Positions 53-19,847 of a DNA stretch of 19,847 nucleotides are shown here, one piece after another. The notes under the pieces were generated by a model. The model saw nothing but the letters and a program-made list of their open reading frames with translations, made no database searches and was not told where the DNA came from. Position 1 is the first letter of the stretch; every line of letters begins with the position of its first letter. Both the position numbers and the translations under genes were made by a program. The stretch spans positions 1 through 19,847 of the forward strand of contig CAMLKW010000063.1 in assembly GCA_946480605.1 (NCBI GenBank). Reading direction: 5' to 3'. This stretch comes from an uncultured Roseateles sp. GTDB taxonomy: Bacteria; Pseudomonadota; Gammaproteobacteria; Burkholderiales; Burkholderiaceae.

Positions 53-87
53 GACCTCTGGTGACCTGAATGCGTAGCACAGAATCC

Positions 88-162: not shown

Positions 163-197
163 GACCTCTGGTGACCTGAATGCGTAGCACAGAATCC

Positions 198-272
198 GGG
201 CGGTTAGCTCAGCGGTAGAGCACTGCCTTCACACGGCAGGGGTCGCAGGTTCGAACCCTGCACCGCCCACCA
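198..272 (+). tRNA. tRNA-Val (CAC)
   Basis: A complete 75-base tRNA identical to the copy 110 bp upstream, with anticodon CAC at 230-232 and encoded CCA at 270-272. It is the last member of the array. A Rho-independent terminator begins 12 bases after its end. Confidence 0.97.
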
Positions 273-5079: not shown

Positions 5080-6168
5080 ATGCGTGTGGTGCAGATCTGT
5101 GCCGAGCGCGGGCCGCCCGGGCTGGATGCGGCCGGGCTGCTGCGCGCCTGGCCCACCACCGTGCGGGTGGCCGAGGCGGCGGCCTCGGCCGGCGCCGCGG
5201 TGCGGGTGGTGCTGCATCACGAGCAGCCGCAGCGGTTCAGCCAGCGTGGGGTGGACTACCACTTCCTGCCGCTGGCCGGCGCGGCGCCGGCTGCGACGCT
5301 GGCCACGCTGCTGCAGCAGGCCGACCCCGAGCTGCTGCATGTGCACGGCCTGCATTTCGGCGCCCTGGTGCGCTCGCTTGCAGAGTTATGCCCGCAGCGG
5401 CCCCTGCTGCTGCAACACCATGCGGGCCGGCCCGCACGCCGGCCGCTGGGCTGGTGGCGCATGCGCCGCGCGCTGGCGCCGGCGCGCGGCCTGCTGTTCT
5501 GCAGCGCCGAGCAGGCCCAGCCCTTTGCGCGCTGGCGGCTGCTGCCGCGCGGCTGCCGCGTCTACGAGGTGCCCGAGTCCACCGCCGTCTTCCGCCCGCA
5601 GCAAGGCGCGCCCCGCCTGGCCGGCGACCCGGCGCTGCTGTGGGTGGCCCATCTGAATGCCAACAAGGACCCGCTGACCGTGCTCGCCGGCATCGAGCGC
5701 GCGCTGCCGCGCCTGCCGGGGCTGCAGCTGTGGATGTGCTTCCGCGAAGCGCCGCTGCTGCCGGCCGTGCAGGCCCGCATCGCTCGGGGCCCGCTGGCCG
5801 GCCGCGTGCATCTGCTGGGGCCGCAGCCGCCTGAGCGCATCGAGCAGCTGATGTCGGCCGCCGACCTGTTCGTGCAGGGCAGCCACGAGGAGGGCAGCGG
5901 CTACAGCCTCATTGAGGCGCTGGCCTGCGGGCTGACGCCGGTGGTGAGCGACATCCCGTCGTTCCGGGCGCTGGCCGGCGGCTGCGCCAGCGCCCGGCTG
6001 TGGCCCGTGGGCGATGCCGCGGCGCTGGCTGAAGCGCTGGTGGCCGCCGCCGCCATGCCGGCCGATGAGCGCCGTGCCGCCACGCGTGCGCATTTCGAGC
6101 GGCAGCTGTCCCCGGCTGCGTTGGGGCGTCGGCTGTGCGAGGTCTATGTCGACGCGTTGCGGCCGTGA
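5080..6168 (+). CDS. GT4-like glycosyltransferase
   Basis: This 362-aa protein has the GT-B layout. The N-terminal domain contains LLHVHGLHFGALV (residues 85-97), the equivalent of the HxHG-type acceptor-side motif. The C-terminal domain has WVAHLNANKDP with Lys196, and the donor-binding E-x7-E motif (Glu271 to Glu279, in HEEGSGYSLIEAL). It should transfer a sugar from a nucleotide donor onto a growing glycan at the cytoplasmic face of the inner membrane. It starts 20 bases after the porin gene, and no TGAACCTTT motif precedes it. The stop overlaps the flippase start (GTGA), which ties it to polymer export. Sugar and acceptor cannot be told from sequence. Confidence 0.88.
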   Translation: MRVVQICAERGPPGLDAAGLLRAWPTTVRVAEAAASAGAAVRVVLHHEQPQRFSQRGVDYHFLPLAGAAPAATLATLLQQADPELLHVHGLHFGALVRSLAELCPQRPLLLQHHAGRPARRPLGWWRMRRALAPARGLLFCSAEQAQPFARWRLLPRGCRVYEVPESTAVFRPQQGAPRLAGDPALLWVAHLNANKDPLTVLAGIERALPRLPGLQLWMCFREAPLLPAVQARIARGPLAGRVHLLGPQPPERIEQLMSAADLFVQGSHEEGSGYSLIEALACGLTPVVSDIPSFRALAGGCASARLWPVGDAAALAEALVAAAAMPADERRAATRAHFERQLSPAALGRRLCEVYVDALRP

Positions 6169-7565
6169 GCGGACTGCGCACAGCGCTGCTGCACTACAGC
6201 GCGTCCAGCGGCCTGAGCCTGCTGGTGCGCCTGGCCGTGGGCCTGCTGCTGGCACGCTGGCTGAGCCCCGAGGACTTCGGCACCTGGGGCCTGGCGCTGG
6301 CGATCTATGGCGGCTGCCAGCTGTTGCGCGACCTGGGCGTGTCGGCCTGGGTGCAGCGCGTGCCGGTGCTGGATGGGCGGGACTGGTCGGCGGCGCTGGG
6401 CCTGTCGCTCGCTGCCGCGCTGGCCTGTGCACTGGGCCTGTGGGCGTTCGCGCCGCTGCTGGAGGCCGCGCTCGCGCATGCCGGCCTCTCGGCGCCGCTG
6501 CGGCTGCTGGCACTGGCCTTGCCGCTGTCGGCGTTGGGCAGCCTGCTGGCGGCTTTGCAGATGCGCCGGCTGGCGGCACGGCCGCTGGCCTGGGTCGCGC
6601 GGGCGGGCGACCTCACGCATGCCGCGCTGGCGCTGGGCCTGTGCGTGAACGGCTGGGGCGCCGCCGGGCTGGCGGCGGCCGAGCTGGGTTGCGGGCTGGT
6701 CTGCACCGCCTTGTCGTGGCGGCTGCGCGAGCCCGGCCTGCGCTGGCGGCCGGGGCTGCGGGGCTGGGGCCGGCTGCTGCGCTTCGGCCTGCCGCTGCAG
6801 GGCGCGCAGGCGCTGGCCTGGGCCGGCGCCGCCTGGCCCGCGGCCTGGCTGGGCCTGCGGCTGCCGGGGAGCGAGCTGGGGCATTTCCTGCGCGCCCAGG
6901 CCACCGTGCAACTGCTGCCGCAGCTGGCCCAGCCGGCGCTGGGCTTCGCGGCGCTGCCCTGGCTGTCGCGCACGCAGTCCGAGGGTCGGCCGCTGGCACC
7001 CGCGCTGGAGCATCTGGCGGCGCTGCTGATCGGCCTGGGCTGGCCGGCGCTGGCGTTGCTGGTGTGGGCCGGGCCGCAGCTGCTGGCGCTGCTGTATGGC
7101 CCCGGCTGGGCCGGCTGTGCGCCCGGCCTGCTGCCGCTGGCTCTGGCGGTAGCGCTGGGCCTGGCCTGGCTGCCGCAGAACGCGGCATTGACGGCTCGCG
7201 GTCTGACGCGCCGCGTCTGGCAGCTGCAGCTCGCGCAGTTGTCATTGCGGCTGCTGGCCAGCCTGTCAGTGGCCGTGCTGTGGCCTGGTTCGGGCTGGCT
7301 GGGCCTGGCCTGGGCCTGGGCGCTGGCGGCGCTGCTGGCGTGGCCGCTGCAGGCCGTGGTGGCCTGGCGGGATCTGGGCCAGCGGCCGGCGACCTGGGCG
7401 CTGCATGCGCTGGCAGCCAGCGCAGTGGCGCTGGCCGTCGCCGCAGTTCTCGGACCTGTGGTCGGCCTGGCAGCGGCGCTGGCGCTGCTGTGCGCTTCAG
7501 ACCATCCGCTGCGTGGCGAACTGGCCGCTCAGCTGCCGCGGCGTTTGAGCACCACCAGGAAATGA
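6165..7565 (+). CDS. Wzx/MATE-like polysaccharide flippase
   Basis: This 466-aa protein is almost entirely hydrophobic, with roughly a dozen membrane helices. The N-terminal segment LLARWLSPEDFGTWGLALAIYG matches the A-R-x-L-x-P-E-x-F-G pattern of O-antigen/EPS translocases. It should move lipid-linked oligosaccharides from the inner to the outer face of the inner membrane. GTG 6165 is chosen because it overlaps the glycosyltransferase stop (GTGA). A GTG 30 bases earlier would add ten polar residues inside the upstream gene. The last 37 bases overlap, antisense, the end of the methyltransferase gene. Confidence 0.87.
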   Translation: MSGLRTALLHYSASSGLSLLVRLAVGLLLARWLSPEDFGTWGLALAIYGGCQLLRDLGVSAWVQRVPVLDGRDWSAALGLSLAAALACALGLWAFAPLLEAALAHAGLSAPLRLLALALPLSALGSLLAALQMRRLAARPLAWVARAGDLTHAALALGLCVNGWGAAGLAAAELGCGLVCTALSWRLREPGLRWRPGLRGWGRLLRFGLPLQGAQALAWAGAAWPAAWLGLRLPGSELGHFLRAQATVQLLPQLAQPALGFAALPWLSRTQSEGRPLAPALEHLAALLIGLGWPALALLVWAGPQLLALLYGPGWAGCAPGLLPLALAVALGLAWLPQNAALTARGLTRRVWQLQLAQLSLRLLASLSVAVLWPGSGWLGLAWAWALAALLAWPLQAVVAWRDLGQRPATWALHALAASAVALAVAAVLGPVVGLAAALALLCASDHPLRGELAAQLPRRLSTTRK

Positions 7566-8347
7566 TCGCCCAGCGCACGCACCAGCGGCCGGCCGGCGAT
7601 GCGGCGGTCCAGCCACCACAGCGCGCGGTACAGCCGCGGGTGGCGCTCGCGCAGCGTCGTCAGATAGGGCGGCGGCACCAGCACGCACAGGCCGCGCACC
7701 ACCTCCACATCGAACTCGCGCGCGAACGCGGCGCAGAACTCGCCGGGTGTGTAGTAGCGCGTCCAGATGGTGTGGCCGTTCATGCCCACGGCCACCGTCC
7801 CGCGCGCGAAGCGCAGCTTCAGCCGCGCCCAGCGGCGCTGGCGCGCGTAGTGCCAGATCTCCCACGGGCACCAGCGGCCGATGACGGTGAACACCAGCCG
7901 CCCGCCCGGCCGCAGCAGGCGGGCGCAGTGGGCGGACATGGCCTGCAGGTCGGGCACGCAGTTCAGCGGGCCGAGGTTGGAGTAGGCGCCGTCGAAGCGG
8001 CCGTCGCCGTCCAGCAGCTGCAACTCGTGCGCACCCACAGGCAGCGCCTGCACGCGGCCGGCCAGGTCGGCGTCGCGGGCGCGCTGGCGGGTGCGGGCCA
8101 CCATGGCCGGCGACCAGTCGGTGGCCACCACCTCGTGGCCCAGGCCGGCCATGCGCACGGCGTCCAGCCCGGTGCCGCAGCCCAGGTCGATGAGGCGAGC
8201 GGGCGTGGGGAACTGCAGGTCCAGCCAACGCCACATCTCGGCGCGCATGTCCTGGATGCAGGCGTTGTTGCCGCGCGGGCCGTCGTAGTCGGCGGCCACG
8301 CTGTCGAAGGCGGCCTGGGTGTCGGTCAAGTGGGACGAGGTGTTCAT
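7529..8347 (-). CDS. Class I SAM-dependent methyltransferase
   Basis: This 272-aa protein has the Rossmann-type SAM site: motif I LIDLGCGTG (residues 52-60), motif II VVATDWSP (73-80), and the later segments FDGAYSNLGPLNCV and LLRPGGRLVFTVIG. Its place among glycosyltransferases suggests methylation of a sugar or a lipid-linked intermediate. The long C-terminal part after residue 160 is not diagnostic. It is convergent with the flippase, overlapping by 37 bp. It is divergent from the next glycosyltransferase with only 17 bases between start codons. No SD is seen before ATG 8347, so start or expression level is less sure than the family. Confidence 0.86.
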   Translation of the reverse strand: MNTSSHLTDTQAAFDSVAADYDGPRGNNACIQDMRAEMWRWLDLQFPTPARLIDLGCGTGLDAVRMAGLGHEVVATDWSPAMVARTRQRARDADLAGRVQALPVGAHELQLLDGDGRFDGAYSNLGPLNCVPDLQAMSAHCARLLRPGGRLVFTVIGRWCPWEIWHYARQRRWARLKLRFARGTVAVGMNGHTIWTRYYTPGEFCAAFAREFDVEVVRGLCVLVPPPYLTTLRERHPRLYRALWWLDRRIAGRPLVRALGDHFLVVLKRRGS

Positions 8348-8351
8348 GGGC

Positions 8352-8358
8352 AGGAGGT
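8352..8358 (+). promoter_or_regulatory. Ribosome binding site supporting a TTG start
   Basis: AGGAGGT lies 6 bases before TTG 8365, a near-ideal SD at a good distance. The first in-frame ATG (8377) would be 18 bases away, so TTG is the more likely start of the glycosyltransferase. Confidence 0.75.
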
Positions 8359-8364
8359 GCGGTC

Positions 8365-9474
8365 TTGAAGCTGGCGATGGTGGTGCCCGGCGGCGTGGAC
8401 GCCTCGGGCGAGGTGAAGGTGATTCCGGCGCTGCTGGCCCTGATAGCGCGGCTGGCGGCGCGGCATGAGCTGCATGTCGTGGCGCTGTACCAGCAGCCCG
8501 AGCCCGGCCGCTGGACTCTGCACGGTGCCCAGGTGCACAACGTCGGCGCGGGGCCCAATGCGCTGCGGCAGTGGCGGGCGTTGCGCGTGCTGGCGCGCGA
8601 GCATGGGCGGGCGCGCTTCGACGTCATCCAGTCGCTGTGGGCCGGGCCCTGCGGCGTGACGGCCGTGCTGGCCGGGCGCTGGCTGGGCGTTCCCGCGGCC
8701 GTGCACGTGGCCGGCGGCGAGCTGGTGGCGCTGGACGACATCGCCTACGGCGGCCGGCGCGACCTGCGGGGGCGCTGGCGCGAGGGCTGGGTGTTGCGCC
8801 AGGCGCAGGCCGTCACCGCCGCCAGCCAGCCCATGCTGGATCAGATCGCCGCGCTGGGCCGCAGCGCGCAACGCCTGCCGCTGGGCGCGGACCTGGCGTG
8901 CTGGCCCGCGCAGCCGCCGCAGCGCCGCGAGCCTGGCGAGCCGCTGCGGCTGATCCACGTCGCCAGCCTGAACCGCGTGAAAGACCCGGCCTGCCTGCTG
9001 CACGCCGTGGCGCAGCTGCGCGCGCAAGGCCTGGCCCTGCGGCTGGACCAGGTGGGCGTGGACACGCTGGACGGCGAGGCTCAGCGCCTGGCCACCCGGC
9101 TGGGGCTGGACGACTGCGTGCGCTTCCACGGCTTCAAGACCCAGGCCCAGCTGCGGCCGCTGCTGGCGCGGGCGCACCTGCACCTGGTCAGCTCGCGGCA
9201 CGAGGCCGGGCCGGTGGCGGCGCTGGAGGCGGCCGTGCTGGGCGTGCCCAGCGTGGGCACGGCCGTGGGCCATCTGCAGGAGTGGGATGCGCAGGCGCCG
9301 CTGCCTGGCGATGCGCAAGGTCTGGCGCAGCGCGTGGCCGTGCTGGCCGCCGACGAGGACGCGCGGCTGGCGCTGGCCGCCCGTGTGCAGCGGCTGGCCT
9401 TGCAAGATGATGCCGACCACACGGCGGCCTGCTTCGAGCGGCTTCATGCGGGCTTGTGCGGGGTGGGCCGGTGA
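8365..9474 (+). CDS. GT4-like glycosyltransferase
   Basis: This 369-aa GT-B enzyme has LAMVVPGGVDASGE at the N-terminus, forming the first beta-strand and its glycine loop. DVIQSLWAGPCG follows in the acceptor domain, then HVASLNRVKDP with Lys206. The donor-side E-x7-E motif runs from Glu280 to Glu288 in RHEAGPVAALEAA. It should add a sugar to the same surface polymer as the enzyme at 5080, which it resembles in layout but not in detail. TTG 8365 is used because of the adjacent SD. The last 31 bases overlap, antisense, the end of the nucleotidyltransferase gene. Donor sugar unknown. Confidence 0.88.
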   Translation: MKLAMVVPGGVDASGEVKVIPALLALIARLAARHELHVVALYQQPEPGRWTLHGAQVHNVGAGPNALRQWRALRVLAREHGRARFDVIQSLWAGPCGVTAVLAGRWLGVPAAVHVAGGELVALDDIAYGGRRDLRGRWREGWVLRQAQAVTAASQPMLDQIAALGRSAQRLPLGADLACWPAQPPQRREPGEPLRLIHVASLNRVKDPACLLHAVAQLRAQGLALRLDQVGVDTLDGEAQRLATRLGLDDCVRFHGFKTQAQLRPLLARAHLHLVSSRHEAGPVAALEAAVLGVPSVGTAVGHLQEWDAQAPLPGDAQGLAQRVAVLAADEDARLALAARVQRLALQDDADHTAACFERLHAGLCGVGR

Positions 9475-10688
9475 TCGAGCGCGCGCTGCACCGCATACAG
9501 CGTCTGCACCCGCGGCGGCGCGCCGCGCAGGAAGCGCAGCGCCTTGCGCCACGGCGCCCGCGCGACCCAGGCAGCGCCGCGCAGCGAGGCTTGGGCCCGC
9601 ACCTGCTGCTGCAGCGTGGCGCGGCTGCGTGCGTCGGGCCACAGGCGCTGGCGGGCGCAGGCCCAGGCCTCGGCCAGCGAATGGCTCCACTCGATGCCCG
9701 GCAGCGGCTGTATGGCCAGCCGCGACAGCGACACGGCGCTGAGGGTCTCGCGCTCGCCAACGGCGCGCAGCCGGGCCGGGCAGGCGCCCTGGGCGGCGCG
9801 CCAGGCGCTGGTCTGCATGGCCAGCTGCAGGTCGGCGCCGGCATGGCGGCGCGCGAGCTCCAGGCAGGGCCATGCCCACCAGGCCGGCAGGCCGTCGGAG
9901 CCGGGGGCCAGGGCTTGCTCCCAGTCGGCCGGCTGCAGCCGAGGGGCCAGCCGGGCCAGGTCGATCAGCTGCACCAGGCGCAGCGCGCGGTTGCACAGGT
10001 TGCCGGCGCTGTGCAGCAGCAGGTGGCGCATCAGCGCGGCCGGGCTGGGGTAGGGCTGCAGGCCCGCGGGCAGCTCGGCGCGCCACAGGTCGGCCGTGAT
10101 GTCCACGCGGCGCACCGGCAGCCGTTCCGCCACGGCGGTGTGCAGCTCGATGCGGATGGCGTTGCCGGCGTGCTCGCCAAACGCCGGCTCGGCCGGCATG
10201 CCGGGCGGCAGGTAGTCCACGTGCTTCCACATCTCGACGTGGCGGGTGTAGCCCAGGCCCTGGATCAGCCGGTCCGCGGCGGCGTCGGCCTGGCCGGGCG
10301 CGCACAGCAGGTCGATGTCGCCCATGGGCCGGTGGCCCGGCGCATGCACGCCGAGCGCCAGCAGCGCCGATCCCTTCAGGCCGATCAGCGCCAGGCCCTG
10401 GGTGCGCGCGGCGGCATCGATGCGTGCCAGCAGCTCGGCGATGGCCTGCTCGCGCAGCCGGCCCTGCCAAGCCTGTTCGGCCAGGAAGTCCTGCCAGTCG
10501 GCGGGGCCTTGCCAGCGCAGACGTTCGGCCAGCCGGGCCGACAGGCCGTGCAGAAAGGACGTGGCCATCGCGATGCGCCACTGCCAGGGCGACCAGTCCG
10601 GCGCCGTCGCCATGGGCTGGCGCAGCTCGGCGGCCAGGCGCTCGGTGGTGTCGTGCAGCGCGGCCTGCAGCAGGGTGGAAGAGGACAT
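9444..10688 (-). CDS. PF14907-type nucleotidyltransferase family protein
   Basis: This 414-aa protein carries the signature of the uncharacterised nucleotidyltransferase family (NTP_transf_5). It has LIGLKGSALL (Lys105), then RPMGDIDLL with the metal-binding pair Asp124 and Asp126, and later IELHTAV (Glu181, His183). The rest is helical. These proteins commonly accompany HprK-related kinases, and here the kinase gene starts 20 bases away on the other strand. Reaction and substrate are not established for the family. ATG 10688 (MSSSTLL) is chosen because the reading frame upstream becomes Arg/Ala-rich, shadow-like sequence overlapping the kinase gene. No clear SD is seen. Confidence 0.8.
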   Translation of the reverse strand: MSSSTLLQAALHDTTERLAAELRQPMATAPDWSPWQWRIAMATSFLHGLSARLAERLRWQGPADWQDFLAEQAWQGRLREQAIAELLARIDAAARTQGLALIGLKGSALLALGVHAPGHRPMGDIDLLCAPGQADAAADRLIQGLGYTRHVEMWKHVDYLPPGMPAEPAFGEHAGNAIRIELHTAVAERLPVRRVDITADLWRAELPAGLQPYPSPAALMRHLLLHSAGNLCNRALRLVQLIDLARLAPRLQPADWEQALAPGSDGLPAWWAWPCLELARRHAGADLQLAMQTSAWRAAQGACPARLRAVGERETLSAVSLSRLAIQPLPGIEWSHSLAEAWACARQRLWPDARSRATLQQQVRAQASLRGAAWVARAPWRKALRFLRGAPPRVQTLYAVQRALDHRPTPHKPA

Positions 10689-11722: not shown

Positions 11723-11877
11723 GAGGTTTTCGGCCGTGCCCGAAAGGCGCGCCAAAAGGCCCCTGATCTAGGCGCAAAGCACAGCCATAGCTCTGTCTAT
11801 GGCGAGCATTTGCAACGACGAGCAGGGGTGTTTTGGCGAGCAAGGCGGGCATGGATGAAAGCCTCTCAACCTCTCAG
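11711..11877. repeat. 167-bp imperfect palindrome between convergent genes
   Basis: The left arm (from CTCAGAGGTTGAGAGG at 11711) and the reverse complement of the right arm (from CTGAGAGGTTGAGAGG at 11877 backward) match along most of about 80 bases. Shared blocks include TGCCCG, CGCCAAAA and CCCCTG. The centre is a perfect 7-bp stem GCCATAG (11784-11790) and CTATGGC (11797-11803) with a 6-base loop. The stop codons of both convergent genes lie in the outer arms. It could be a dispersed MITE- or REP-like element and should act as a bidirectional terminator in RNA. No other copy is seen in this window. Confidence 0.8.
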
Positions 11878-13304
11878 TTAAGGGCCTCGGCCGGCGCAAC
11901 CTGCGCCAGCAGCGCCTGCCAGCGCGCGGGCAGGCTGGCGCGCGCGGCCGGGTCCCGCCACTCGACCTCGGCATGCAGCAGCTCGCGCACCTCGCGGTAG
12001 AAGGCGCTGCCAAAGCTGCCCTGGAACATCATGGCCAGGTCGGCGCTGTGGTCCCAGTGCGTCTTGGCGCCCAGCTGCGCGCGCACCTGCGCATGGAAGG
12101 GTGTGCCCGGCAGCGGGTAGCTGACGCTGACGCCGATGGCATCGGGCCGCGCACGGCGCACCAGGTCTAGGGTCTGCAGCAGCTCGGGCAGGCCTTCGCC
12201 CAGATAGCCCAGCTGGATGAAGAAGCCCACGCGCACGCCCACGGCGCGCAGCCGCTCGCGGGCGCGCAGGTTGTCGGCCACCGCCATGCCCTTGTGCATG
12301 GCGTCCAGCACGGCCTGGCTGCCGCTCTCGGCGCCCAGCCAGACTTCCTGGCAGCCGGCGTCGCTCAAGGCCTGGGCCATCGCGTCGCTGACCAGGTCGG
12401 CGCGGGTCTGTATCGTGAACGGCAGCCCGCCGCCGCCGCGAATCAGTGCGTCGGCAAAGCGCTCCACCCAGTCGGTGCGGAAGCCGAAGATGTCGTCGGC
12501 AAACCAGATGTGGTCCGGCTCGAAGCGCTGCTTGAGCATCAGCATCTCGGCCGCCACGGCCTCGGCGCTGCGCTGCTGGTAGCTCTGGCCCCAGATGGGC
12601 TTGGCGCACCAGGCGCAGCGGAAGGAGCAGCCCTTGGACGCCGCCATGTTGAGGCTGAACTGGCCATGCGCCGCCTGCCAGACGCGGCGGTAGCGGGCCA
12701 CGTCCACCAGTTCCCAGGCGACCGGCGCTTCCAGCGTGTCGCTGCCACGCCGCGCGGCGGGCAGCTGCACGACGGCTTGCGGTTCGCCGCGCAGCAGCTG
12801 GTCCTCGTGCCAGGCCAGCGCGCCGTCCAGCCCCTGTACCAGCGCTGCCGCGTCCAGCCCGGGGGCGGCCGCGAGGCGCTGGATCAGCGTGGGAATCACG
12901 TCCAGCCCCTCGCCGCGGCAGACCGCCGCCGCGCCGGCGCCGAGATACACCTCGGGCGCGTCGCTGACGTCCGAGCCGGCGGCGATGACCTGCGCGCCGC
13001 CGGCGCGTGCCAGCCGGATCATCGCCAGCGCCGCCTCGCGCATGCGCGCCAGGCACATCTTGCTCAGGTAGTTGTAGTTGTCCTCGTACAGCAGCACGAC
13101 GGCCGGCTGCTGCTGCGTCAGCTGCGTGGCGAACTCGCCCACGCCGTCGGCCAGCATGGCGTCGAACACCGCCACCTCGTGGCCCAGCCCCTGCAGCAGT
13201 GCGGCGACCTGCAAGGTGGCCAGCGGCGGGTAGGGCCTGGCGCGCTGCGCCTGCTTGGGGTCGAAGCGCAGGAAATAGGAATGGGCGACCAGAACCGACG
13301 GCAT
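11874..13304 (-). CDS. B12-binding-domain-type radical SAM protein
   Basis: This 476-aa protein has an N-terminal Rossmann-like region of the cobalamin-binding type (PPLATLQVAALLQGLGHEVAVFD, residues 26-48). A radical SAM core follows with the iron-sulfur motif C-x3-C-x2-C (Cys226, Cys230, Cys233 in KGCSFRCAWC), then HIWFADDIFGF and EVWLGAESGSQ as expected for the beta-barrel strands. The DxHxxG cobalamin ligand motif is not intact: the region reads DAMLADG. B12 may bind base-off without a His, or not at all. The SD GGGAG precedes ATG 13304. A TGAACCTTT motif lies 74 bases upstream. The family often methylates or rearranges small molecules, lipids or sugars. The substrate here is unknown, and its setting suggests glycan or lipid modification. 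Confidence 0.85.
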   Translation of the reverse strand: MPSVLVAHSYFLRFDPKQAQRARPYPPLATLQVAALLQGLGHEVAVFDAMLADGVGEFATQLTQQQPAVVLLYEDNYNYLSKMCLARMREAALAMIRLARAGGAQVIAAGSDVSDAPEVYLGAGAAAVCRGEGLDVIPTLIQRLAAAPGLDAAALVQGLDGALAWHEDQLLRGEPQAVVQLPAARRGSDTLEAPVAWELVDVARYRRVWQAAHGQFSLNMAASKGCSFRCAWCAKPIWGQSYQQRSAEAVAAEMLMLKQRFEPDHIWFADDIFGFRTDWVERFADALIRGGGGLPFTIQTRADLVSDAMAQALSDAGCQEVWLGAESGSQAVLDAMHKGMAVADNLRARERLRAVGVRVGFFIQLGYLGEGLPELLQTLDLVRRARPDAIGVSVSYPLPGTPFHAQVRAQLGAKTHWDHSADLAMMFQGSFGSAFYREVRELLHAEVEWRDPAARASLPARWQALLAQVAPAEALN

Positions 13305-13357
13305 GCATGCTCCCTGTCGTCATCGCCCGGCCGAGGGGCCGGCGGCGAGACGAGCGG

Positions 13358-13386
13358 TGGGTGCTGTCGGCGGCGGGAAAGGTTCA
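13358..13386 (-). promoter_or_regulatory. Putative ECF-type promoter of the radical SAM gene
   Basis: On the minus strand TGAACCTTT occupies 13386-13378, with TGAACC at 13386-13381. After 17 bases comes CACCCA (13363-13358). The 9-mer and spacing match the sites at 326 and 3469. Transcription would start about 45 bases before ATG 13304, leaving room for its SD. Only the -35 part is well conserved here. Confidence 0.45.
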
Positions 13387-13425
13387 AAGCCCGGCCGTGG
13401 CCTCCCCCGGAGGGCATGGTGCCAG

Positions 13426-14385
13426 TCAGGTCAGGGGGGCCTGGATCAGCTCCGGCAGGTCGCCGCAGATGGCCGTGTCGTTGTGCATTTCAATCATCCC
13501 GGTGGGGGCCACGGAGAACTCGGCGCTGAACAGGGCGTTGCCGTAATAGACCGTCGCTTCGCAGTGGTACGTCCCCTGTTCGTCGACGTGGGTCAGCCTC
13601 GCCACGGACAGCCGGGCTTTCGCGTCGTCAGACAGCACGGCGACGGAGGCAGGCGGCAGCAGGGGGGCCGCCGCGTCGGCCGGGATGAAGAAGGGGCCCT
13701 CATCGCCGCGCACGAAGAAGCAGAAGAACTTCAGGTAGTCGAGCACGCAGAGGTCATTCAGCCTGATCGGTGCCTTCGCATTGACCTCGTGGATGGGCGG
13801 CGAGCTGCCGTTCAGGCGCATCAGGGACTGCTCGCAGGTCAGGTAGTACAGCGCCAAGTCCTTGGTTTGCCAGTCCGGATCGTGCACCCGGATCAGCACT
13901 TCGTTCTCGTACCAGGGCAGCGTCCGGAAATGGACCGCCGTCGTCCTGGGCGTGACGCGGATACGGCCATCGATGGGGTTGAGTTCTGACAGGAAGTTGG
14001 CGGCCTGGTCGCCGGTGAAGGGTGTCCAGCCGCAGCTTTCCAGTCCGTCGATGGGCCAGTTGCCCGGCAGCAGCGTGTCGCCGGACCGGTAGGGATGAGG
14101 GCTTGCGGCGCCGGGGCTGGCCGACTTGATGGCGGCCACCTGGAAGTCGTTGGCAACCTCCATGGCTGCGGCCTCCCTGATGGCGGCGCCCAGCGTCTCG
14201 TTGTTCGCGATGTTGTGCAGCGCCTGCCGCACCACCTTCTTGTTGAGGTGGCCTGCGTCGACGAGGCGCCTCAGGCGCGCGAGGTCTTCGCTGACCAGCG
14301 CATCGGCGCCTGCCACGGTGATGCGCTCCAGCAGGGCGTTCGCGACGTTCTGTGTCAGTTGCAGCGAGAACTCGTCGTTGATCAT
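13426..14385 (-). CDS. Protein of unknown function, partner of the STAND NTPase
   Basis: This 319-aa protein is not one I recognise. The first 90 residues are helical and charged (for example LARLRRLVDAGHLNKKVV). The middle (about 95-230) is mixed, with several Trp and aromatic runs: PGNWPIDGLESCGWTPF, FRTLPWYENEVLIRVHDPDW, and LDYLKFFCFFVRG. The C-terminal third has beta-strand patterns such as TYHCEATVYYGNALFSAEFSV. There is no signal peptide and no clear membrane helix. Its ATG overlaps the STAND gene stop (ATGA), so the two are translated together and probably act together. It may be the effector, the sensor or an accessory factor. Base composition is as low in GC as the STAND gene (about 62% in one sampled 60-base row). 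Confidence 0.8.
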   Translation of the reverse strand: MINDEFSLQLTQNVANALLERITVAGADALVSEDLARLRRLVDAGHLNKKVVRQALHNIANNETLGAAIREAAAMEVANDFQVAAIKSASPGAASPHPYRSGDTLLPGNWPIDGLESCGWTPFTGDQAANFLSELNPIDGRIRVTPRTTAVHFRTLPWYENEVLIRVHDPDWQTKDLALYYLTCEQSLMRLNGSSPPIHEVNAKAPIRLNDLCVLDYLKFFCFFVRGDEGPFFIPADAAAPLLPPASVAVLSDDAKARLSVARLTHVDEQGTYHCEATVYYGNALFSAEFSVAPTGMIEMHNDTAICGDLPELIQAPLT

Positions 14386-17300
14386 GGTGCGGTTCCTTCG
14401 GGCAGCCAGGTGTCGGGGGCGAGGCCCGCCGCGATCTCCAGGCGAGCAAAGCTGGTCGCGGCCTGCACCGCGGCGTGGTGATGTTCCTCCAGCACGGCGC
14501 TTGCCGGGAGCGGCACCGCGGGCGCGCCGCACAGAGCGACGAGGCGAGCCCGCCAGCCCTGCACGCGGGGGTCCTCCGGCCCCAGCCATGCGAGCAGCAT
14601 CGGCAGCATGAGCAGGATGTCCGTGCGCGCGATGAAGTCACCTTCGTCTGTCCCGGTCGACCACATCGCCTCCAACTCGCGCAGCACGGCGTGCTCCTGT
14701 CCGGCCATCAGGCGCTGGGTCGCCAAGGCCAGCATCAGTTGCCGACCATCGGCCAGTTGGCTCGTCGTTTGCGCGTCGCGCCGGACGCGGTCAACGAGCC
14801 AGACGTCGATCTCGTCCGTGGGCCCCGGCGCTGGCAGCCGCTGAAGCAACAGCTGGGTCAAGGCCTTGCGCACACGCTCGCCGATCTGGGCGATGGCCGT
14901 CTCGAAGATGGCTTGTATGGTGGATCTGTGACTGCTGGCGAGATTCCTCAGTAACGACAGGTGGCGTGCAAGGCGCTTCCAGCCATGTGCGTTGGTCGAG
15001 GCAGCGTCGAAGCCGTGCGACTGGACGGTGTGCGCGTAGGCGGCCAGGGCGTCACCGACATCGGACCCCTGTAGGTGGCAGTCACTGATCAGGTCGCTGT
15101 AGAAATCGACGATCTCGGCAGTGACGGGAAGACCCTCTGGCCGTTGAGCCGCTCGCGCGATGGCCTCTGCAGCGGCCGTTAGGCCTGCGAGCGTGGGTCG
15201 CTGGCATTGGTGCTCGTAGTAGGCGAGTTGGCCGGCGATGCGGCAGAGGGCGTTGGTCAGGCGCTTGAGCTGGGGGCGGGACAGCTCGCTGGACAGGCAC
15301 CGATGAAACAGGTCTCTTGCCAGCTCCCACCGGTCCGCCAGCGATGGCGCTTCCGCGGCCCGGTCCGATGGTTCGATTTCGTGCAGCAGTGAGCGAGTCA
15401 GCAGGATCAGATGGTTGTCGAGAAAACGGACGGCTTCCAGCATGGCCAGCGGCTGGGTGAAACCTTGGCCGTGGTGGAGCGCCCATATGGCGTCGTAGAC
15501 AGGCCGGCCGCGGGTCGAGTTTGCGCCGTCCTCGGCATAGACGAGTGCCGAGTTGATGCTGGCGGCGAGTGCCACTGCGTCTTCGTCCAGCTCATCCTGT
15601 TGGATGCTCCGCAGGCTGCGCTCCGCCAGCCTGCTGCGCTGCTGGCGTTCCTCGGGGGTCAGCGTGGTGGCGGCATAGCCGTGCTTGCCCGGGCGGCTCC
15701 GGTTCTCCCAGAAGACCGAATGGAGCGCGTCGCAGACGGTAGCGCCGTGCTGAAGCCGCAGCTCCAGGCTCTGGCTGGAAAACACGCCGGTCTCGGCCTG
15801 CTCGAACAACTGCATCAGCAATGAGGCCGCTGCCTCCGTGGTCGCTTCATCGCTGCGCAGGGTTTCCTGGTCGTCGCGCGGCGCCGTGAGGGCCGGGGCC
15901 GAGCCGCCCGCTGCCACTGCGGCGAAGGTCACCGTGCGTTTTCCCAGCTTGTCTGCAATCGGTGTTCCCTCGACCTCCGGGGGTGCACTGGACTTGTTGA
16001 TGACGAAGCTGAGCTGGCCGGTCAGGATCTTGATCGTCGTGGCGTGCATCAACCGCATGGCATCCGAACCGGCGGCTTCCAGCGGGAACCGCGCAAGCAG
16101 CTCGCGCATGCGCTTGATGTCTTCGAGCGAGGCCGGGCGTGTGCGCAATGAGGCCACCGTCGCCAGAGCGAGGTTGCGGAACAGTTGCTCTCGTTCCGGC
16201 GTTGCGCCGGACATGGCGCTGTCCGGCAGCAGCCATCCCAGCTTCGCGGCGCGTTCCGGGAAGTCCTGCGCCACCAGCACCGCGAAAAACGCTGCGCCGG
16301 CGGGGTCGGCACACCAGGCGTACTCGCGCATCAGCTTGCGCCTGCGTTGCGCGGTGCCCGGGTGACCGCACAAGGCCTTGCCCCTGTCGTCCAGCATCAT
16401 CAGCACCAGGCTCTCGCCGATCAGGTCCGGTTCAAGGATGGGGTAGGGGTCGGCGTCCTCGTCCGTGCGTACCGTGCCAGACAGCGCGGCCAGCAGCTGT
16501 TCCTCGTCCAGCATCTGGGCCGATGAGGTGCCGTCCGTGGCGCTGAAATGCAGCGGGTGGGCCGGCAGCAGTGAGCAAGCGCCTTGCCAGAGCGCGGCGT
16601 TGTTGCGCAGGCGCTCCCAGCCGGCAGGCGTGAGCCCTCGGCACATGGTCGACAGGATGAGCAGTGACAGGTGGCGATCGATCCGTTCGCGGCGCGGCGC
16701 TTCGTCCAGTCCGGTGTAAGGCGGGCTCCAGCGTTTGCGGTACTGGTGTTCGAGGTAGTCCCAGAACAGCTGCAGGCGGGCCTCTTCCTGCGAGGTGGTG
16801 CGGGTGGCCGGGTCCGGCAGGAGGCCGCGAGCGTAGGCGTCGGCCACCATCGCCGCGAACAGCGGGCGCATCAGCGGGTCGTACCCGCGCAGCAGCGCCA
16901 GCAGCTGCTGTGGGCTCCTGGATTGGCCGGGCTGCATGCCGCTTGCGGTGCTGGTGGAGTCCCGGTAGCGCTGCAAGCGTAGCTCCATGAGCACGCCCGT
17001 TTGCTCGTCGGTCAGCCCGTCCAGGAAGAGGGCGCCGGATCGGTCGTCGTGGCGGCCGGGCGGCGGTGGAAAGCTGATCTGCGAGTTGAGCGCCGTGGCA
17101 CCGTCCGTCTGGCGGGCCACGGCCTCGAAGAAACGGTCGCTGGAACGACGCAACAGCACCAGCGCTCGCACCGGGTGCGGCGAGGTGTCGGCCAGCGCCG
17201 CACAGCGTTCCAGGAAGCGACAGCAGTCCTCGGGCAGGCCTGCTGCGTAATCGATGACGAACAGCGTCGGTGCCGGAATTTCGGCCAAGCTGCTCATCGT

Positions 17301-18584
17301 GGTTGCCGCTGAGCGGATGAAATCTTCCCGCACGAAGCCCGAGAACGGCCAAGCCTCTTTCTCGGCATTCACGACCTGCAGCGCCAAACGGCTCTTGCCA
17401 ATGCCGGCATCGCCGCAGATCGCGGCCCAGCGGAACCGGGGCGAGTCGGGCGACTGCGCCAGCAGTTCACCGCGCAGAGCGGTCAGCGCTGATTCGCGGC
17501 CGAGGAAGGGGTCTTCCTCCTCGGCAAAGTAGAACGGCTTGTAGGCAGACGCGAAGGCGGACGAGCTGCCGATGCCAGGCTTGAAGAAGACCTGCTTGTC
17601 GCCGAGCGCGAATTGCCTGCCGATGCGACCCAGGTCCACTGCATGCCGGCCCAGGGCCTGCTGGATGTGGTCGATGCCTCGGAGGATGTTCGCGCCGATC
17701 TGGTCGAAGTCCGCGTGCATCGCCTGGAGTTGTCGCCATTGCCGGTCCAGCGCCGCGTCGGTGGCGTCCAGTTGCTGGGACATCTGCACGAACGACGCGG
17801 CCAGCTGAGCCTGCAGGCGCGACTGAACATCCAGCTCCCAGGCTGTTCTTGCTTTGACGTTCGCCGGGGCCTTCAACTCCTCCCGGAATGCCAGCCGCAG
17901 GCCATCCCACCATCCACCCGGATGCAGGTGCAGCTGCGTGACCAACAGGTCTGGGAGGCCCGCTGGCGCGACGGGGGCGAGGTCGTCCGGCTCGATTCCC
18001 GCGAAGCGCCCGGGTCCACCAGTCACATCTGACAGCCAGGCCACGTAGTCACTCACCACCCTGGCTCGCAGCAGCCCAGGGTCGTCGTTGGCAAAGCATT
18101 CGGAGCCGGCGCGGACCAGTGCCGGCAGGTCTGCCAGAGCGCCCCCATTCAAGAGCACCAGCCGCTCCAGGCTCATCGTGGCCAGGGCCGTGTGCAGGCG
18201 CATGAATGTGCGCCGTAGGCGGCACAAGGTGTCCAGGGTCGGATCAACCCGGCTGCGCCAGCGAGCCTTGAGGGCTTCGCGGACATTGCGCTCGCCCAGG
18301 TCCAGGCCGCAATGCCTGAGGATGCTTGCGTTCAGAACCTCGACCAGCGCGGCGCACTCGGCCCGCCGCAGCACTCGCAGCAGATCGTGGTTGCGGTCAT
18401 GGCCGCCCAGGCGAACCAGCTCGGAGAGTTCCGGAACCTTGTCCAGCAGCGGCCTGGCCAGGTACTTGCCTGACTCCCAGAGCAGCGACGCAGCCAGGTT
18501 GCCGATGACGCCGCCCAGGAAGGCGCTGCCCAGGCACTCGCCGCTGGTCCAGAGCGATCCGCTCGCGGCATCCTGCCTAGGCAT
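14382..18584 (-). CDS. Large STAND-type P-loop NTPase, candidate defence protein
   Basis: This 1400-aa protein has, in order, a hydrophobic N-terminal helix (about 18-36) and a helical region with RNHDLLRVLRRAECAALVEVL (65-85), a pattern seen at the front of other STAND proteins. A long helical or coiled-coil stretch (about 250-320) follows, then the NTPase. The NTPase begins with DPFLGRESALTALRGEL (358-374) and has Walker A GDAGIGKS (391-398, Lys397), Walker B LFVIDYAAG (441-449, Asp445) and VRALVLLRRSSDRFF with candidate sensor arginines at 479-480. From about 560 to the end it is mostly helical, as in the superhelical sensor domains of STAND proteins, without clear TPR or WD repeats. STAND proteins oligomerise on sensing a trigger. 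In bacteria many are anti-phage. No known effector domain was recognised. ATG 18584 follows the SD GGAGGTG. An upstream GTG lies inside that SD. It overlaps its partner by 4 bp. Confidence 0.85.
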   Translation of the reverse strand: MPRQDAASGSLWTSGECLGSAFLGGVIGNLAASLLWESGKYLARPLLDKVPELSELVRLGGHDRNHDLLRVLRRAECAALVEVLNASILRHCGLDLGERNVREALKARWRSRVDPTLDTLCRLRRTFMRLHTALATMSLERLVLLNGGALADLPALVRAGSECFANDDPGLLRARVVSDYVAWLSDVTGGPGRFAGIEPDDLAPVAPAGLPDLLVTQLHLHPGGWWDGLRLAFREELKAPANVKARTAWELDVQSRLQAQLAASFVQMSQQLDATDAALDRQWRQLQAMHADFDQIGANILRGIDHIQQALGRHAVDLGRIGRQFALGDKQVFFKPGIGSSSAFASAYKPFYFAEEEDPFLGRESALTALRGELLAQSPDSPRFRWAAICGDAGIGKSRLALQVVNAEKEAWPFSGFVREDFIRSAATTMSSLAEIPAPTLFVIDYAAGLPEDCCRFLERCAALADTSPHPVRALVLLRRSSDRFFEAVARQTDGATALNSQISFPPPPGRHDDRSGALFLDGLTDEQTGVLMELRLQRYRDSTSTASGMQPGQSRSPQQLLALLRGYDPLMRPLFAAMVADAYARGLLPDPATRTTSQEEARLQLFWDYLEHQYRKRWSPPYTGLDEAPRRERIDRHLSLLILSTMCRGLTPAGWERLRNNAALWQGACSLLPAHPLHFSATDGTSSAQMLDEEQLLAALSGTVRTDEDADPYPILEPDLIGESLVLMMLDDRGKALCGHPGTAQRRRKLMREYAWCADPAGAAFFAVLVAQDFPERAAKLGWLLPDSAMSGATPEREQLFRNLALATVASLRTRPASLEDIKRMRELLARFPLEAAGSDAMRLMHATTIKILTGQLSFVINKSSAPPEVEGTPIADKLGKRTVTFAAVAAGGSAPALTAPRDDQETLRSDEATTEAAASLLMQLFEQAETGVFSSQSLELRLQHGATVCDALHSVFWENRSRPGKHGYAATTLTPEERQQRSRLAERSLRSIQQDELDEDAVALAASINSALVYAEDGANSTRGRPVYDAIWALHHGQGFTQPLAMLEAVRFLDNHLILLTRSLLHEIEPSDRAAEAPSLADRWELARDLFHRCLSSELSRPQLKRLTNALCRIAGQLAYYEHQCQRPTLAGLTAAAEAIARAAQRPEGLPVTAEIVDFYSDLISDCHLQGSDVGDALAAYAHTVQSHGFDAASTNAHGWKRLARHLSLLRNLASSHRSTIQAIFETAIAQIGERVRKALTQLLLQRLPAPGPTDEIDVWLVDRVRRDAQTTSQLADGRQLMLALATQRLMAGQEHAVLRELEAMWSTGTDEGDFIARTDILLMLPMLLAWLGPEDPRVQGWRARLVALCGAPAVPLPASAVLEEHHHAAVQAATSFARLEIAAGLAPDTWLPEGTAP

Positions 18585-18587
18585 GGC

Positions 18588-18594
18588 CACCTCC
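18588..18594 (-). promoter_or_regulatory. Ribosome binding site of the STAND gene
   Basis: On the minus strand GGAGGTG lies just before GCC-ATG. The GGAGG core is 5 bases from ATG 18584, so this ATG is preferred over the in-frame GTG at 18590, which would overlap the SD itself. Confidence 0.75.
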
Positions 18595-18694
18595 GGCGCT
18601 TGAATGGGACGGCCCGCCGGGCATGCGCCTGCGGTGGCTCATGCGGGTCATCGCTGAAACTCGCCCAAGGCCCTGCACCTTCATTCAACCTCTC

Positions 18695-18722
18695 CCTGAC
18701 GGCCAGTATGTGTGGCGTCAGG
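18695..18722. other. Hairpin in the folA-STAND gap
   Basis: CCTGACG (18695-18701) and CGTCAGG (18716-18722) are perfectly complementary. The stem can extend by CCA/TGG past a single bulged G, leaving a 7-base loop. It lies in the 187-bp gap between folA and the STAND gene. No T-run follows on either strand, so it is not a classical terminator. It could be a weak terminator of thyA-folA, or an operator. Apart from this and the SD, no convincing promoter was found in the gap (18595-18781). Confidence 0.45.
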
Positions 18723-18781
18723 CTTCTCGCGCAACTGCGGTCACCCCGGCCCGGCAGGGATGAGTCCAAACTTGTGGGCGC

Positions 18782-19273
18782 TCAGTTCTGGTGCAAGTAG
18801 TCCACGAAATCGACGCGCAGACCGTCGGCGGTCGTCAGCGTGCTGCGCGCGGACTCGGCAAAGCGCTCACGCGGCCAGGCGGGGAAATGGCGGTCGGCGT
18901 CGGGGAAGGCGGCGTCCACCTCAGTCAGCGCCAGCTTGTGCGCGCGGGGCAGGGCCAGCGCATAGATCTCGCTGCCGCCGATGACGCAGACCTCGGGCTC
19001 GGTGCAGGCGGCCAGCGCGGCGTCCAGGCTGGGGAACACCTCGGCGCCGGGCAGCTCAGCGACCGAGCGGCTGACGACCAGGTTGCGCCGGCCGGGCAGG
19101 GGGCGGAACTTCGCGGGCAGCGAGTCCCAGGTCTTGCGGCCCATGACGACCGGCTTGCCCGCGGTGACGGCCTTGAAGCGCGCCATGTCCTCGGGGATGT
19201 GCCACAGCAGCGCGTTGTCGCGGCCGATGGCGCCGTCCTTCGCGACCGCCGCCACCAAGGTGATCAGGCTCAT
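18782..19273 (-). CDS. folA: Dihydrofolate reductase
   Basis: This 163-aa protein is of normal length for bacterial DHFR, which reduces dihydrofolate to tetrahydrofolate with NADPH. Seen are the N-terminal strand [15 protein letters not shown], the Met20-loop/active-site segment LLWHIPEDM with the acidic residue at Asp29 (by alignment to Asp27 of E. coli), [12 protein letters not shown] (42-53), and [15 protein letters not shown] for the cofactor-binding region. It overlaps the thyA stop by 4 bp (ATGA). This is functionally sensible, because thymidylate synthase makes the dihydrofolate that this enzyme recycles. Confidence 0.97.
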
Positions 19274-19847
19274 ACAGCCACCGGCGCCTTGATGGCCGGA
19301 TGGGGGTCGTAGCCGCTGAGCTCGAAGTCTTCGAACTCGTAGTCGAAGATCGACGCCGGCCTGCGCTTGATCGTCATCGTCGGGTAGGCGCGCGGCTCGC
19401 GGGCGAGCTGGGTCTGCACCTGCTCCACGTGGTTGTCGTAGATGTGGCAGTCGCCGCCGGTCCAGATGAAGTCGCCCAGCTGCAGGTCGCACTGCTGGGC
19501 CAGCATCATCGTCAGCAGAGCATAGCTGGCGATGTTGAAGGGCACGCCCAGGAAGATGTCGGCCGAGCGCTGGTAGAGCTGGCAGGACAGCTTCCCGTCC
19601 GCCACGTAGAACTGGAAGAACGCGTGGCAGGGCATCAGCGCCATCCGCGGCAGGTCGGCCACGTTCCAGGCGCTGACGATGATGCGGCGGCTGTCGGGGT
19701 TGGTCTTGAGCTGCTTCACCACCTCGGCGATCTGGTCGATATGGCCGCCGTCGGGCGTGGGCCAGCTGCGCCACTGCACGCCGTAGACCGGGCCCAGGTC
19801 GCCATCGGGCTTGGCCCACTCGTCCCAGATCGTCACGCCGCGTTCCT
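19270..19847 (-). CDS. thyA: Thymidylate synthase, 5' end outside the window
   Basis: Only the C-terminal part (about 191 residues) is in the window. By comparison with E. coli ThyA some 75-80 N-terminal residues are missing beyond position 19847. The enzyme makes dTMP from dUMP with methylene-tetrahydrofolate. Visible hallmarks are [25 protein letters not shown], the catalytic Cys in [30 protein letters not shown], and the C-terminal [14 protein letters not shown] ending. The true start lies upstream; the internal GTG just before TIWDEW is not the start. Coupled to folA. Confidence 0.97.

What the first reader, a model, noticed from the sequence alone, without database searches (positions are those of the whole stretch)
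13426..18584. STAND NTPase plus overlapping unknown partner: candidate new defence system
A 1400-aa STAND-type ATPase with intact Walker A and B motifs is translationally coupled to a 319-aa protein of no recognised family. Most described single-gene STAND defence proteins carry a recognisable effector fused at the N-terminus. Here none is visible, so the partner may be the effector or the trigger sensor. The pair is alone on its strand between folA and unrelated glycan genes and has lower GC than its neighbours, as expected for a mobile defence cassette.
Basis: partly seen in the sequence, partly recalled or inferred. Interest (0 to 1): 0.82.

Follow-up and report, generated by a model that had tools for sequence, protein, structure and literature searches.

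The report
Split STAND sensor with conserved partner
Two overlapping bacterial genes encode an NLR-like ATPase and a partner whose main domain elsewhere sits in the tail part of similar immune-type ATPases, so the pair looks like an immune receptor split into two proteins, though no test of defence has been made.

Summary
In detail: a 1400-aa STAND-type ATPase (14382-18584, -) with intact Walker motifs and a 319-aa partner (13426-14385, -) share an ATGA junction. The pairing recurs in 7 of 7 full-length ATPases known here (window included): on DNA in the window, Acidobacteria bacterium Mor1 and L129; inferred from database records in four. The ATPase does carry an N-terminal module (~300 aa), found on seven other proteins with different backbones; in distant two-gene relatives the N-terminus is swapped or diverged beyond recognition while core and partner stay. 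It is the likelier effector. The partner is a helical domain plus a conserved ~200-aa domain. That domain is a stand-alone gene in Micavibrio and other Alphaproteobacteria, sometimes beside dot/icm-like genes, and occurs in the C-terminal, sensor-side part of nSTAND1 or AAA_16 proteins, two of them beside SIR2-TIR or patatin genes. Best reading: an NLR-like conflict system whose sensor module is a separate, translationally coupled protein. Defence is inferred: PADLOC gave nothing for either protein, and phage, viral and (for the ATPase) plasmid searches were empty. Ligand, killing mechanism and interface are unknown. New variant of a known kind.

The parts
14382..18584 (-). STAND-type ATPase gene, 1400 aa (ATG start; GTG at 18590 gives 1402 aa, the numbering used here)
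   Evidence: ORF; AAA_16 match E 4e-4, below Pfam's cutoff; profile match of its core to the NTPase parts of P0127/P0128/P0130/P0134, probability 95.6% against 0.1% for a reversed control
17646..18563 (-). Transferable N-terminal module, residues ~10-315, candidate effector
   Evidence: 38-48% identity to the N-termini of P0127-P0131 and 30% to P0132, 46% to P0134, proteins with other backbones; only 16-17% to two-gene relatives P0124-P0126 and L129, against 32-56% in residues 336-600
18480..18536 (-). Glycine-rich hydrophobic stretch CLGSAFLGGVIGNLAASLL, residues 19-37
   Evidence: most hydrophobic 19-mer of this protein; the N-terminal stretch ranks first in 10 of 13 proteins examined
15981..17585 (-). 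P-loop NTPase core and following region, residues 336-870
   Evidence: identity to the window protein in residues 336-600: P0123 65%, P0124 56%, P0125 51%, P0126 49%, L129 32%
17391..17414 (-). Walker A, GDAGIGKS, residues 393-400
   Evidence: G393, G396, G398, K399, S400 identical in 7 of 7 sequences
17250..17264 (-). Walker B, LFVID, residues 443-447
   Evidence: D447 identical in 7 of 7 sequences
14385..15980 (-). C-terminal region, residues 871-1402, no recognised repeat
   Evidence: 16-42% identity to five relatives; only a sub-threshold TPR_20 match at 1281-1353, E 0.079
14382..14385 (-). ATGA stop/start overlap of the two genes
   Evidence: junction sequence; 8-bp overlap in Mor1 (L001) and 4-bp in L129
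13426..14385 (-). Partner gene, 319 aa
   Evidence: ORF; homologues along the whole length P0003-P0012, P0017, P0029, Mor1, L129
14134..14385 (-). Partner N-terminal four-helix domain, residues 1-84
   Evidence: AlphaFold2 model, mean pLDDT 88.9 for the whole partner; residues 1-90 keep 27-43% identity in 12 relatives, 82% in P0003, 17% in L129
13429..14040 (-). Partner C-domain, residues 116-319 (alpha/beta; N202 and Y217 invariant)
   Evidence: most of the 120 listed of 751 matches are stand-alone copies of this part; stand-alone gene loci; part of STAND-like proteins; N202 and Y217 identical in 37 of 37 representatives

Best explanation
The pair is an NLR-like (STAND) conflict system in which the C-terminal ligand/sensor module has become a separate protein. 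SHOWN: a P-loop, STAND-like core with intact motifs; a translationally overlapping partner in three distant genomes; an N-terminal module that also occurs on other backbones; the partner's C-domain fused into the C-terminal part of other STAND proteins. INFERRED: the partner docks on the ATPase through its four-helix N-terminal domain; the C-domain binds a conserved ligand or a host or invader factor; binding releases autoinhibition, the ATPase exchanges nucleotide and oligomerises; the clustered N-terminal modules act as effectors, most likely by inserting their glycine-rich stretch into the membrane and killing or arresting the cell. The membrane step is the weakest link (about 0.3 on its own).
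For: Pairing in 7 of 7 full-length ATPases, window included: on DNA for the window, Mor1/L001 and L129; inferred from equal contig lengths, adjacent locus tags or consecutive coordinates for P0122/P0003, P0123/P0004, P0125/P0010, P0126/P0011. Fusion ('Rosetta stone') cases: L096 nSTAND1 E 9e-43 + ankyrin + C-domain at 1298-1500 of 1501; L122 Sinorhizobium plasmid nSTAND1 8e-36 + ankyrin + C-domain at the end, 135 bp downstream of a patatin gene matching a PADLOC effector phospholipase (7e-47); L097 nSTAND1 1.5e-27 + C-domain at 1172-1348 of 1576, 29 bp downstream of a SIR2_2+TIR_2 gene; L123 AAA_16 1.9e-8 + TPR + C-domain near the end. N-module on other backbones. Glycine-rich N-terminal stretch. 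Rarity: 12 ATPase homologues reported, five of them full length; partner-type protein in 1 of 199 genomes of Mor1's phylum, namely Mor1 itself.
Against: No defence gene was recognised in the window and PADLOC has no match for either protein. The C-domain is unusually conserved (44-52% to 12 distant partners; 49-52% to eight stand-alone proteins), odd for a direct sensor of variable phage proteins. Its commonest form is a stand-alone chromosomal gene. No interaction was tested. The N-termini of P0125, P0126 and L129 share by eye an NHxxxRAxRxA-like motif with the window's module, residues R72 and A81 are invariant, and all begin with small-residue-rich stretches: they may be diverged homologues, not swapped modules; (best probability 7%) used one to six sequences a side and is insensitive. 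The N-module model is poor (pLDDT 61), no fold matched and the hydrophobic stretch is borderline (Kyte-Doolittle 1.67; not first in P0125, P0134, L129). The fusion carriers use other STAND families than the window's ATPase, and their scatter on the tree does not prove several origins. Distant P-loop relatives in G743 and G1126 were not shown to have a partner.
Confidence: 0.5

Rival explanations
1. The partner is the effector: the ATPase senses and the partner's C-domain is an enzyme or toxin released on activation.
For: Translational coupling and strong conservation of C-domain residues among the closer members, as in an active site: D139, R166, R190, N192, H199 and N202 are invariant and D169 at least 90% conserved in 56 rows, one protein counted twice.
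Against: The same domain is a stand-alone chromosomal gene in 79 of the 80 loci kept; across 37 diverse representatives only N202 and Y217 are fully kept; where fused to STAND proteins it lies in the C-terminal part, with a SIR2-TIR or patatin gene next door in two loci.
Confidence: 0.18
2. The partner is an adaptor of the effector-associated-domain type: its helical N-terminus makes a homotypic contact with a like domain on the ATPase and the C-domain is cargo.
For: Small helical N-terminal domain followed by a variable linker and a globular domain, the layout described for EAD proteins (PMC7159879, passages).
Against: Profile-profile comparison found no copy of the partner's N-terminal domain in the three parts of the ATPase tested (best probability 2.1%).
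Confidence: 0.1
3. Not defence: a regulatory or secretion-linked pair. The C-domain is a component or chaperone of type IV secretion, and the ATPase remodels or gates it.
For: IcmJ/DotN-like, DotO-like and IcmT-like genes lie in 16, 17 and 18 of the 80 loci, many of them cut short by contig ends; IcmJ/DotN of L072 passes its NCBIfam cutoff (3e-29), DotG/IcmE matches below cutoff (5e-43), while DotO and IcmT are my own reading without a model match. In Pelagibius (L058) a protein with sub-cutoff ClpA N-terminal and IcmJ/DotN matches abuts a C-domain ankyrin protein; on a Sinorhizobium plasmid a C-domain protein abuts a type IV coupling ATPase (PF02534 5e-53).
Against: No secretion gene was recognised in the window. 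Linkage to dot/icm in the Micavibrio-type loci may be plain synteny. The rarity of the two-gene system is atypical of housekeeping machinery.
Confidence: 0.15

Closest known systems
Antiviral STAND / bacterial NLR-like proteins (Avs, bNACHT)
   Same: Central STAND-type ATPase with N-terminal module and C-terminal sensor side; this layout is described in PMC10907252 (abstract and section 12 read); PMC12931631 (abstract and outline read) describes Avs5, with a Sir2-like effector domain.
   Different: The sensor-side domain is encoded by a separate overlapping gene; the two proteins match no PADLOC family and nothing above cutoff in Pfam or NCBIfam, and PDB sequence searches gave only chance-level rows.
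nSTAND1/AAA_16 proteins with the C-domain found here (L096, L097, L122, L123)
   Same: Carry the same C-domain in one chain with a STAND or AAA_16 ATPase.
   Different: Single chain, other ATPase families, and in L097 and L122 a SIR2-TIR or patatin gene next door.
EAD-linked conflict systems and MoxR-vWA ternary systems (PMC7159879, PMC8195603; passages only)
   Same: Modular NTPase-centred operons with a constant core and variable effectors. The Pelagibius locus L058 (DUF4062, an AAA protein that I read as MoxR-type, VWA_CoxE, ankyrin-C-domain) resembles the MoxR-vWA kind.
   Different: No homotypic EAD detected; no MoxR or VWA gene beside the window pair.
DUF4062 'Swarozyc' TIR-like NADases (PMC13174449, passages)
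   Same: A DUF4062 protein (7e-11) is encoded upstream of the ankyrin-C-domain protein in Pelagibius L058.
   Different: No DUF4062 in the window pair; NADase activity is not implied for it.

Membership tests
STAND P-loop NTPases | Intact Walker A and B motifs | tested here: met
   7 of 7 aligned sequences, window included
STAND P-loop NTPases | Profile relationship of the core to a recognised STAND/NB-ARC family | tested here: inconclusive
   Pfam AAA_16 below cutoff; hhalign 95.6% to a four-protein NB-ARC/AAA_16 set over 107 columns and 75.6% to three nSTAND1 proteins over 48 columns, reversed controls 0.1% and 0.2%; P0123 and P0126 carry AAA_16 as precomputed
STAND P-loop NTPases | Winged-helix/helical region after the NTPase and nucleotide-driven oligomerisation | not testable with these tools
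   needs structure and biochemistry; this part was not modelled
Avs / bNACHT antiviral systems | Match to a described defence family | tested here: not met
   PADLOC-DB 2.0.0 (2023): 0 families at E<=1 for both proteins; newer collections were not at hand
Avs / bNACHT antiviral systems | Protection against phage | not testable with these tools
   needs experiment
Avs / bNACHT antiviral systems | N-terminal module exchangeable between ATPase backbones | tested here: met
   window-type N-module on seven other proteins; the converse, other modules on the window's core, is inconclusive
EAD-type conflict systems | Same small domain on core protein and partner (homotypic) | tested here: not met
   hhalign probability at most 2.1% for the partner N-terminus against three parts of the ATPase
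MoxR-vWA ternary systems | MoxR ATPase and vWA protein in the operon | tested here: not met
   the genes from 11874 to 19845 are radical SAM, the pair, folA and thyA
Dot/Icm type IVB secretion component (for the C-domain) | Sequence match to a named Dot/Icm component | tested here: inconclusive
   no Dot/Icm model in NCBIfam matched P0002; stand-alone members were not scanned there; gene linkage was seen in part of the loci

The most novel reading that the evidence does not exclude
A bacterial split NLR with an integrated bait: a conserved cellular protein, kept as a chromosomal gene in Micavibrio and other Alphaproteobacteria and partly linked to type IV secretion genes, was recruited, apparently more than once, into the sensor side of unrelated STAND proteins, and in this system as a free-standing partner. 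The receptor would then guard a conserved cellular process or ligand, in the manner of plant NLRs with integrated decoys, rather than bind a variable phage antigen, and would fire a new class of N-terminal effector.
Probability: 0.14. Interest if true: 0.85.

Novelty: new variant of a known kind. Interest (0 to 1): 0.58.

Why it matters
It points to an unannotated ~200-aa domain that recurs in the sensor-side part of several STAND, TPR or ankyrin proteins, two of them beside known effector genes, and to an unannotated N-terminal module shared by several ATPase backbones. If the pair is a split NLR, sensor and effector can be tested as separate proteins. The conservation of the sensor module would point to guarding of a conserved ligand or process, a mode well described in plants (recalled; PMC8813719 was seen in a search listing only).

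Tried and rejected

The small Pfam/NCBIfam hits of the partner (UPF0253, GatB_Yqey, I-set and GatB/YqeY models) are below cutoffs, and each matched one or two of 56 members; rejected.

Searches of the ATPase in plasmids and phages, of P0127 in plasmids, and of the partner in phages and viral contigs found nothing. The partner did match 4 of 72,556 plasmid records. The ATPase profile matched 0 of 321 genomes of one class and 3 of 17 of another order: G623, where the partner is present, and G743 and G1126, weak matches over about 137 residues at the P-loop. The loci held for those two are 3.4 kb and show no C-domain, but are too short to tell; G743 bears a handle first given around and is not among the 22 of 337 genomes with a C-domain match there, so it probably lacks one.

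Caveats of my own analyses: ORF calling in GC-rich loci was greedy and missed the gene in L011 and L039 and in L130 and L131, which were re-read in all frames. Clusters are loose: 25 of 78 loci with dot/icm clusters is higher than the tblastn counts of 16-18 of 80, and I use the latter. In one search the row 'nucT9444' used wrong boundaries (internal stop) and was dropped. A first tree (51 rows chosen from 123 sequences) suggested at least three origins of the fusion carriers, but its group held one protein (L104) with no recognised ATPase and one ankyrin protein without NTPase. Rebuilt without L104 and with the four real STAND/AAA_16 carriers (50 rows), they still lie in four places, no more clustered than shuffled labels, but well-supported branches force only one origin. 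I therefore dropped the claim of at least three recruitments. In one search, 37 representatives under 60% identity were taken from 123 sequences. Literature searches listed no paper that I recognised as describing this pair or the C-domain; that is not proof of absence from print.
Full report
WHAT IS THERE. The window holds, on the minus strand, a 1400-aa ORF (14382-18584) followed by a 319-aa ORF (13426-14385), with an ATGA overlap. Upstream, on the same strand, are folA and thyA (DHFR_1 9e-47, Thymidylat_synt 1e-92); downstream, also on the same strand, a radical-SAM gene with a B12-binding match just under cutoff. GC of the pair is 66-68%; the left-hand genes are 70-76% except the ECF sigma gene (68%), the two right-hand ones 72% and 66%. 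Promoter scanning found none (0.2 expected) and Rfam gave only tRNAs.

THE ATPASE. Pfam gives only a sub-threshold AAA_16 match at 361-464. Seven aligned sequences, window included, keep Walker A and the Walker B aspartate; the core aligns with a four-protein NB-ARC/AAA_16 set at 95.6% probability (reversed control 0.1%) and with three nSTAND1 proteins at 75.6% over 48 columns (reversed 0.2%). I therefore call it STAND-type, with the exact STAND family open. The search of about 5.8 billion clustered proteins, which scored only 7,992 candidates, reported 12 homologues: five full length (P0122-P0126), six matching only the N-terminal part (P0127-P0132) and one matching only the core (P0133).

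THE N-TERMINAL MODULE. The N-terminal part matches P0127-P0131 at 38-48% and P0132 at 30%; these matches end at residues 296-415 of the window protein. P0134 joins them at 46%. Their backbones differ: NB-ARC+TPR (P0127, P0134), AAA_16 (P0128; below cutoff in P0130, with TPR), NACHT+FGE-sulfatase (P0131), no recognised NTPase (P0129), and a TPR protein by precomputed domains (P0132; not scanned). Conversely, the distant two-gene relatives P0124, P0125, P0126 and L129 keep 56, 51, 49 and 32% identity in residues 336-600 but 16-17% in residues 1-335, and profile comparison finds no relation (best 7%, one to six sequences a side). Against a clean swap: by eye P0125, P0126 and L129 share an NHxxxRAxRxA-like motif with the window's module, and R72 and A81 are invariant in the six-row alignment, so these N-termini may be far-diverged homologues. 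The transferable nature of the module therefore rests mainly on the seven other proteins. The extreme N-terminus is a glycine-rich hydrophobic stretch, the most hydrophobic 19-mer in 10 of 13 proteins examined; the exceptions are P0125 (rank 5), P0134 (rank 11) and L129 (rank 2). A model of the module is all-helical but poor (pLDDT 61) and matches no fold. A membrane-acting effector is my preferred guess, not a result.

THE PARTNER. Its model is good (pLDDT 88.9): four helices (1-84), a linker, and an alpha/beta domain (116-319). One search found 751 proteins at E<=1e-3 and lists the best 120: 13 (P0002 included) cover 96-100% of the query; the other 107 are 205-229 aa and cover only the C-domain. 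With Mor1 and L129 there are 15 partner-type proteins known here; for 7 the ATPase is next door, and for the other 8 I could not see the neighbours. Seen from the ATPase side the score is 7 of 7: on DNA for the window, Mor1 (8-bp overlap) and L129 (4-bp overlap), and by equal contig length, adjacent locus tags or consecutive coordinates for P0122/P0003, P0123/P0004, P0125/P0010 and P0126/P0011. The C-domain is better conserved (44-52% to 12 partners; 79% P0003, 27% L129) than residues 1-90 (27-43%; 82% P0003, 17% L129).

WHERE ELSE THE C-DOMAIN OCCURS. One scan of genome contigs returned 125 relatives, the best 80 kept: one full-length partner (Mor1) and 79 C-domain loci, of which 24 are titled Micavibrio and nearly all others 'Alphaproteobacteria bacterium'. 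In 63 of the 78 loci whose gene was recovered, genes that I read as rnpA, yidC, yidD or engB lie in the fetched stretch. IcmJ/DotN-like, DotO-like and IcmT-like genes lie in 16, 17 and 18 of 80; in L072 IcmJ/DotN passes its NCBIfam cutoff (3e-29), DotG/IcmE matches below cutoff (5e-43), and DotO and IcmT are my own reading. Divergent second copies exist in four genomes checked (G002, G004, G005, G006). The profile matched 4 of 299, 2 of 321, 22 of 337 and 1 of 199 genomes in four samples. Beyond the stand-alone genes, the domain is part of L096 (nSTAND1-ankyrin-C-domain), L122 on a Sinorhizobium plasmid (nSTAND1-ankyrin-C-domain, patatin gene upstream), L097 (nSTAND1-C-domain with 228 residues following, SIR2_2+TIR_2 gene upstream) and L123 (AAA_16-TPR-C-domain). 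L124, a second Sinorhizobium plasmid, has the same arrangement of patatin, coupling ATPase and C-domain protein, but its own domains were not scanned. In Pelagibius L058 a stand-alone C-domain gene (10001-10600) directly precedes DUF4062, AAA, VWA_CoxE and ankyrin-C-domain genes on the same strand. The L122 patatin matches a PADLOC effector phospholipase at 7e-47; that this is the CBASS type is recalled. On a 50-row tree the four STAND/AAA_16 carriers lie in four places, but well-supported branches force only one origin, so repeated recruitment is likely, not shown. Across 37 diverse representatives only N202 and Y217 are identical in all. A stand-alone chromosomal role, a C-terminal-side position in STAND proteins and few invariant polar residues argue for a binding domain rather than a toxin.

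MECHANISM. I propose that partner and ATPase form a receptor: the helical N-terminal domain of the partner docks on the ATPase, the C-domain binds its ligand, the ATPase switches and oligomerises, and the N-terminal modules act. Steps shown: motifs, coupling, a transferable N-module, fusions. Steps inferred: docking, ligand binding, switching, membrane attack. A homotypic adaptor mechanism was tested and not found. The strong conservation of the C-domain speaks against recognition of a variable phage antigen and for a conserved ligand, guarded host factor or shared process.

RELATION TO KNOWN SYSTEMS. It works like an NLR/antiviral STAND, whose effector-STAND-sensor layout is described in PMC10907252 (abstract and section 12 read); PMC12931631 (abstract and outline read) is an Avs5 example. 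It matches no PADLOC family. EAD-type systems (PMC7159879 and PMC8195603, passages read) share the modular logic but not the defining homotypic domain. DUF4062 NADases (PMC13174449, passages read) are neighbours in one related locus.

VERDICT. A real, conserved two-gene system, rare, best read as a STAND receptor split into two proteins. Function in defence is untested. On checking I lowered three scores slightly (best explanation 0.52 to 0.50, novel case 0.17 to 0.14, interest 0.60 to 0.58) and raised the partner-as-effector rival from 0.17 to 0.18, because the rebuilt tree no longer forces several recruitments and because the diverged N-termini may be homologous.

Noticed in passing
L058 10001-19869 (Pelagibius sp. 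Alg239-R121): A stand-alone C-domain gene, then DUF4062, AAA_5-type, VWA_CoxE and 1487-aa ankyrin-C-domain genes in a row, abutting on the other strand a protein with sub-cutoff ClpA N-terminal and IcmJ/DotN matches: a conflict-type operon with a type IVB secretion echo.
   Followed up: partly
L122 702-12552 (Sinorhizobium meliloti plasmid pEm1132b): DUF7779-TPR protein, a 209-aa protein, a type IV coupling ATPase beside a ~254-aa C-domain protein, patatin, and an nSTAND1-ankyrin-C-domain protein together on a plasmid typed as conjugative.
   Followed up: partly
L127 6795-9886: Three C-domain proteins (233, 228, 194 aa) close together on one strand, with a 347-aa gene between the first two.
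   Followed up: no
L100-L103: Divergent C-domain copies in four genomes; in L101-L103 they lie near hemE/hemH-like genes, in L100 near suf-like genes (names read by eye, not scanned).
   Followed up: no
L097 12133-15772: SIR2_2+TIR_2 gene and a 660-aa protein of no Pfam family upstream of an nSTAND1-C-domain protein: a further candidate conflict operon.
   Followed up: partly
P0127-P0132, P0134: Proteins that share the window's N-terminal module on other backbones (NB-ARC, AAA_16, NACHT-FGE-sulfatase, TPR); whether they too have a partner gene was not seen.
   Followed up: partly
window 1-272: Two equally scoring tRNA-Val(cac) genes at 88-162 and 198-272 and the end of a further tRNA at 1-49.
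   Followed up: no
window 5080-10688: Uncharacterised nucleotidyltransferase (NTP_transf_5, 9444-10688) among glycosyltransferase-like and methyltransferase-like genes (by eye) and a flippase-like gene (Polysacc_synt_3): a glycan cluster.
   Followed up: no
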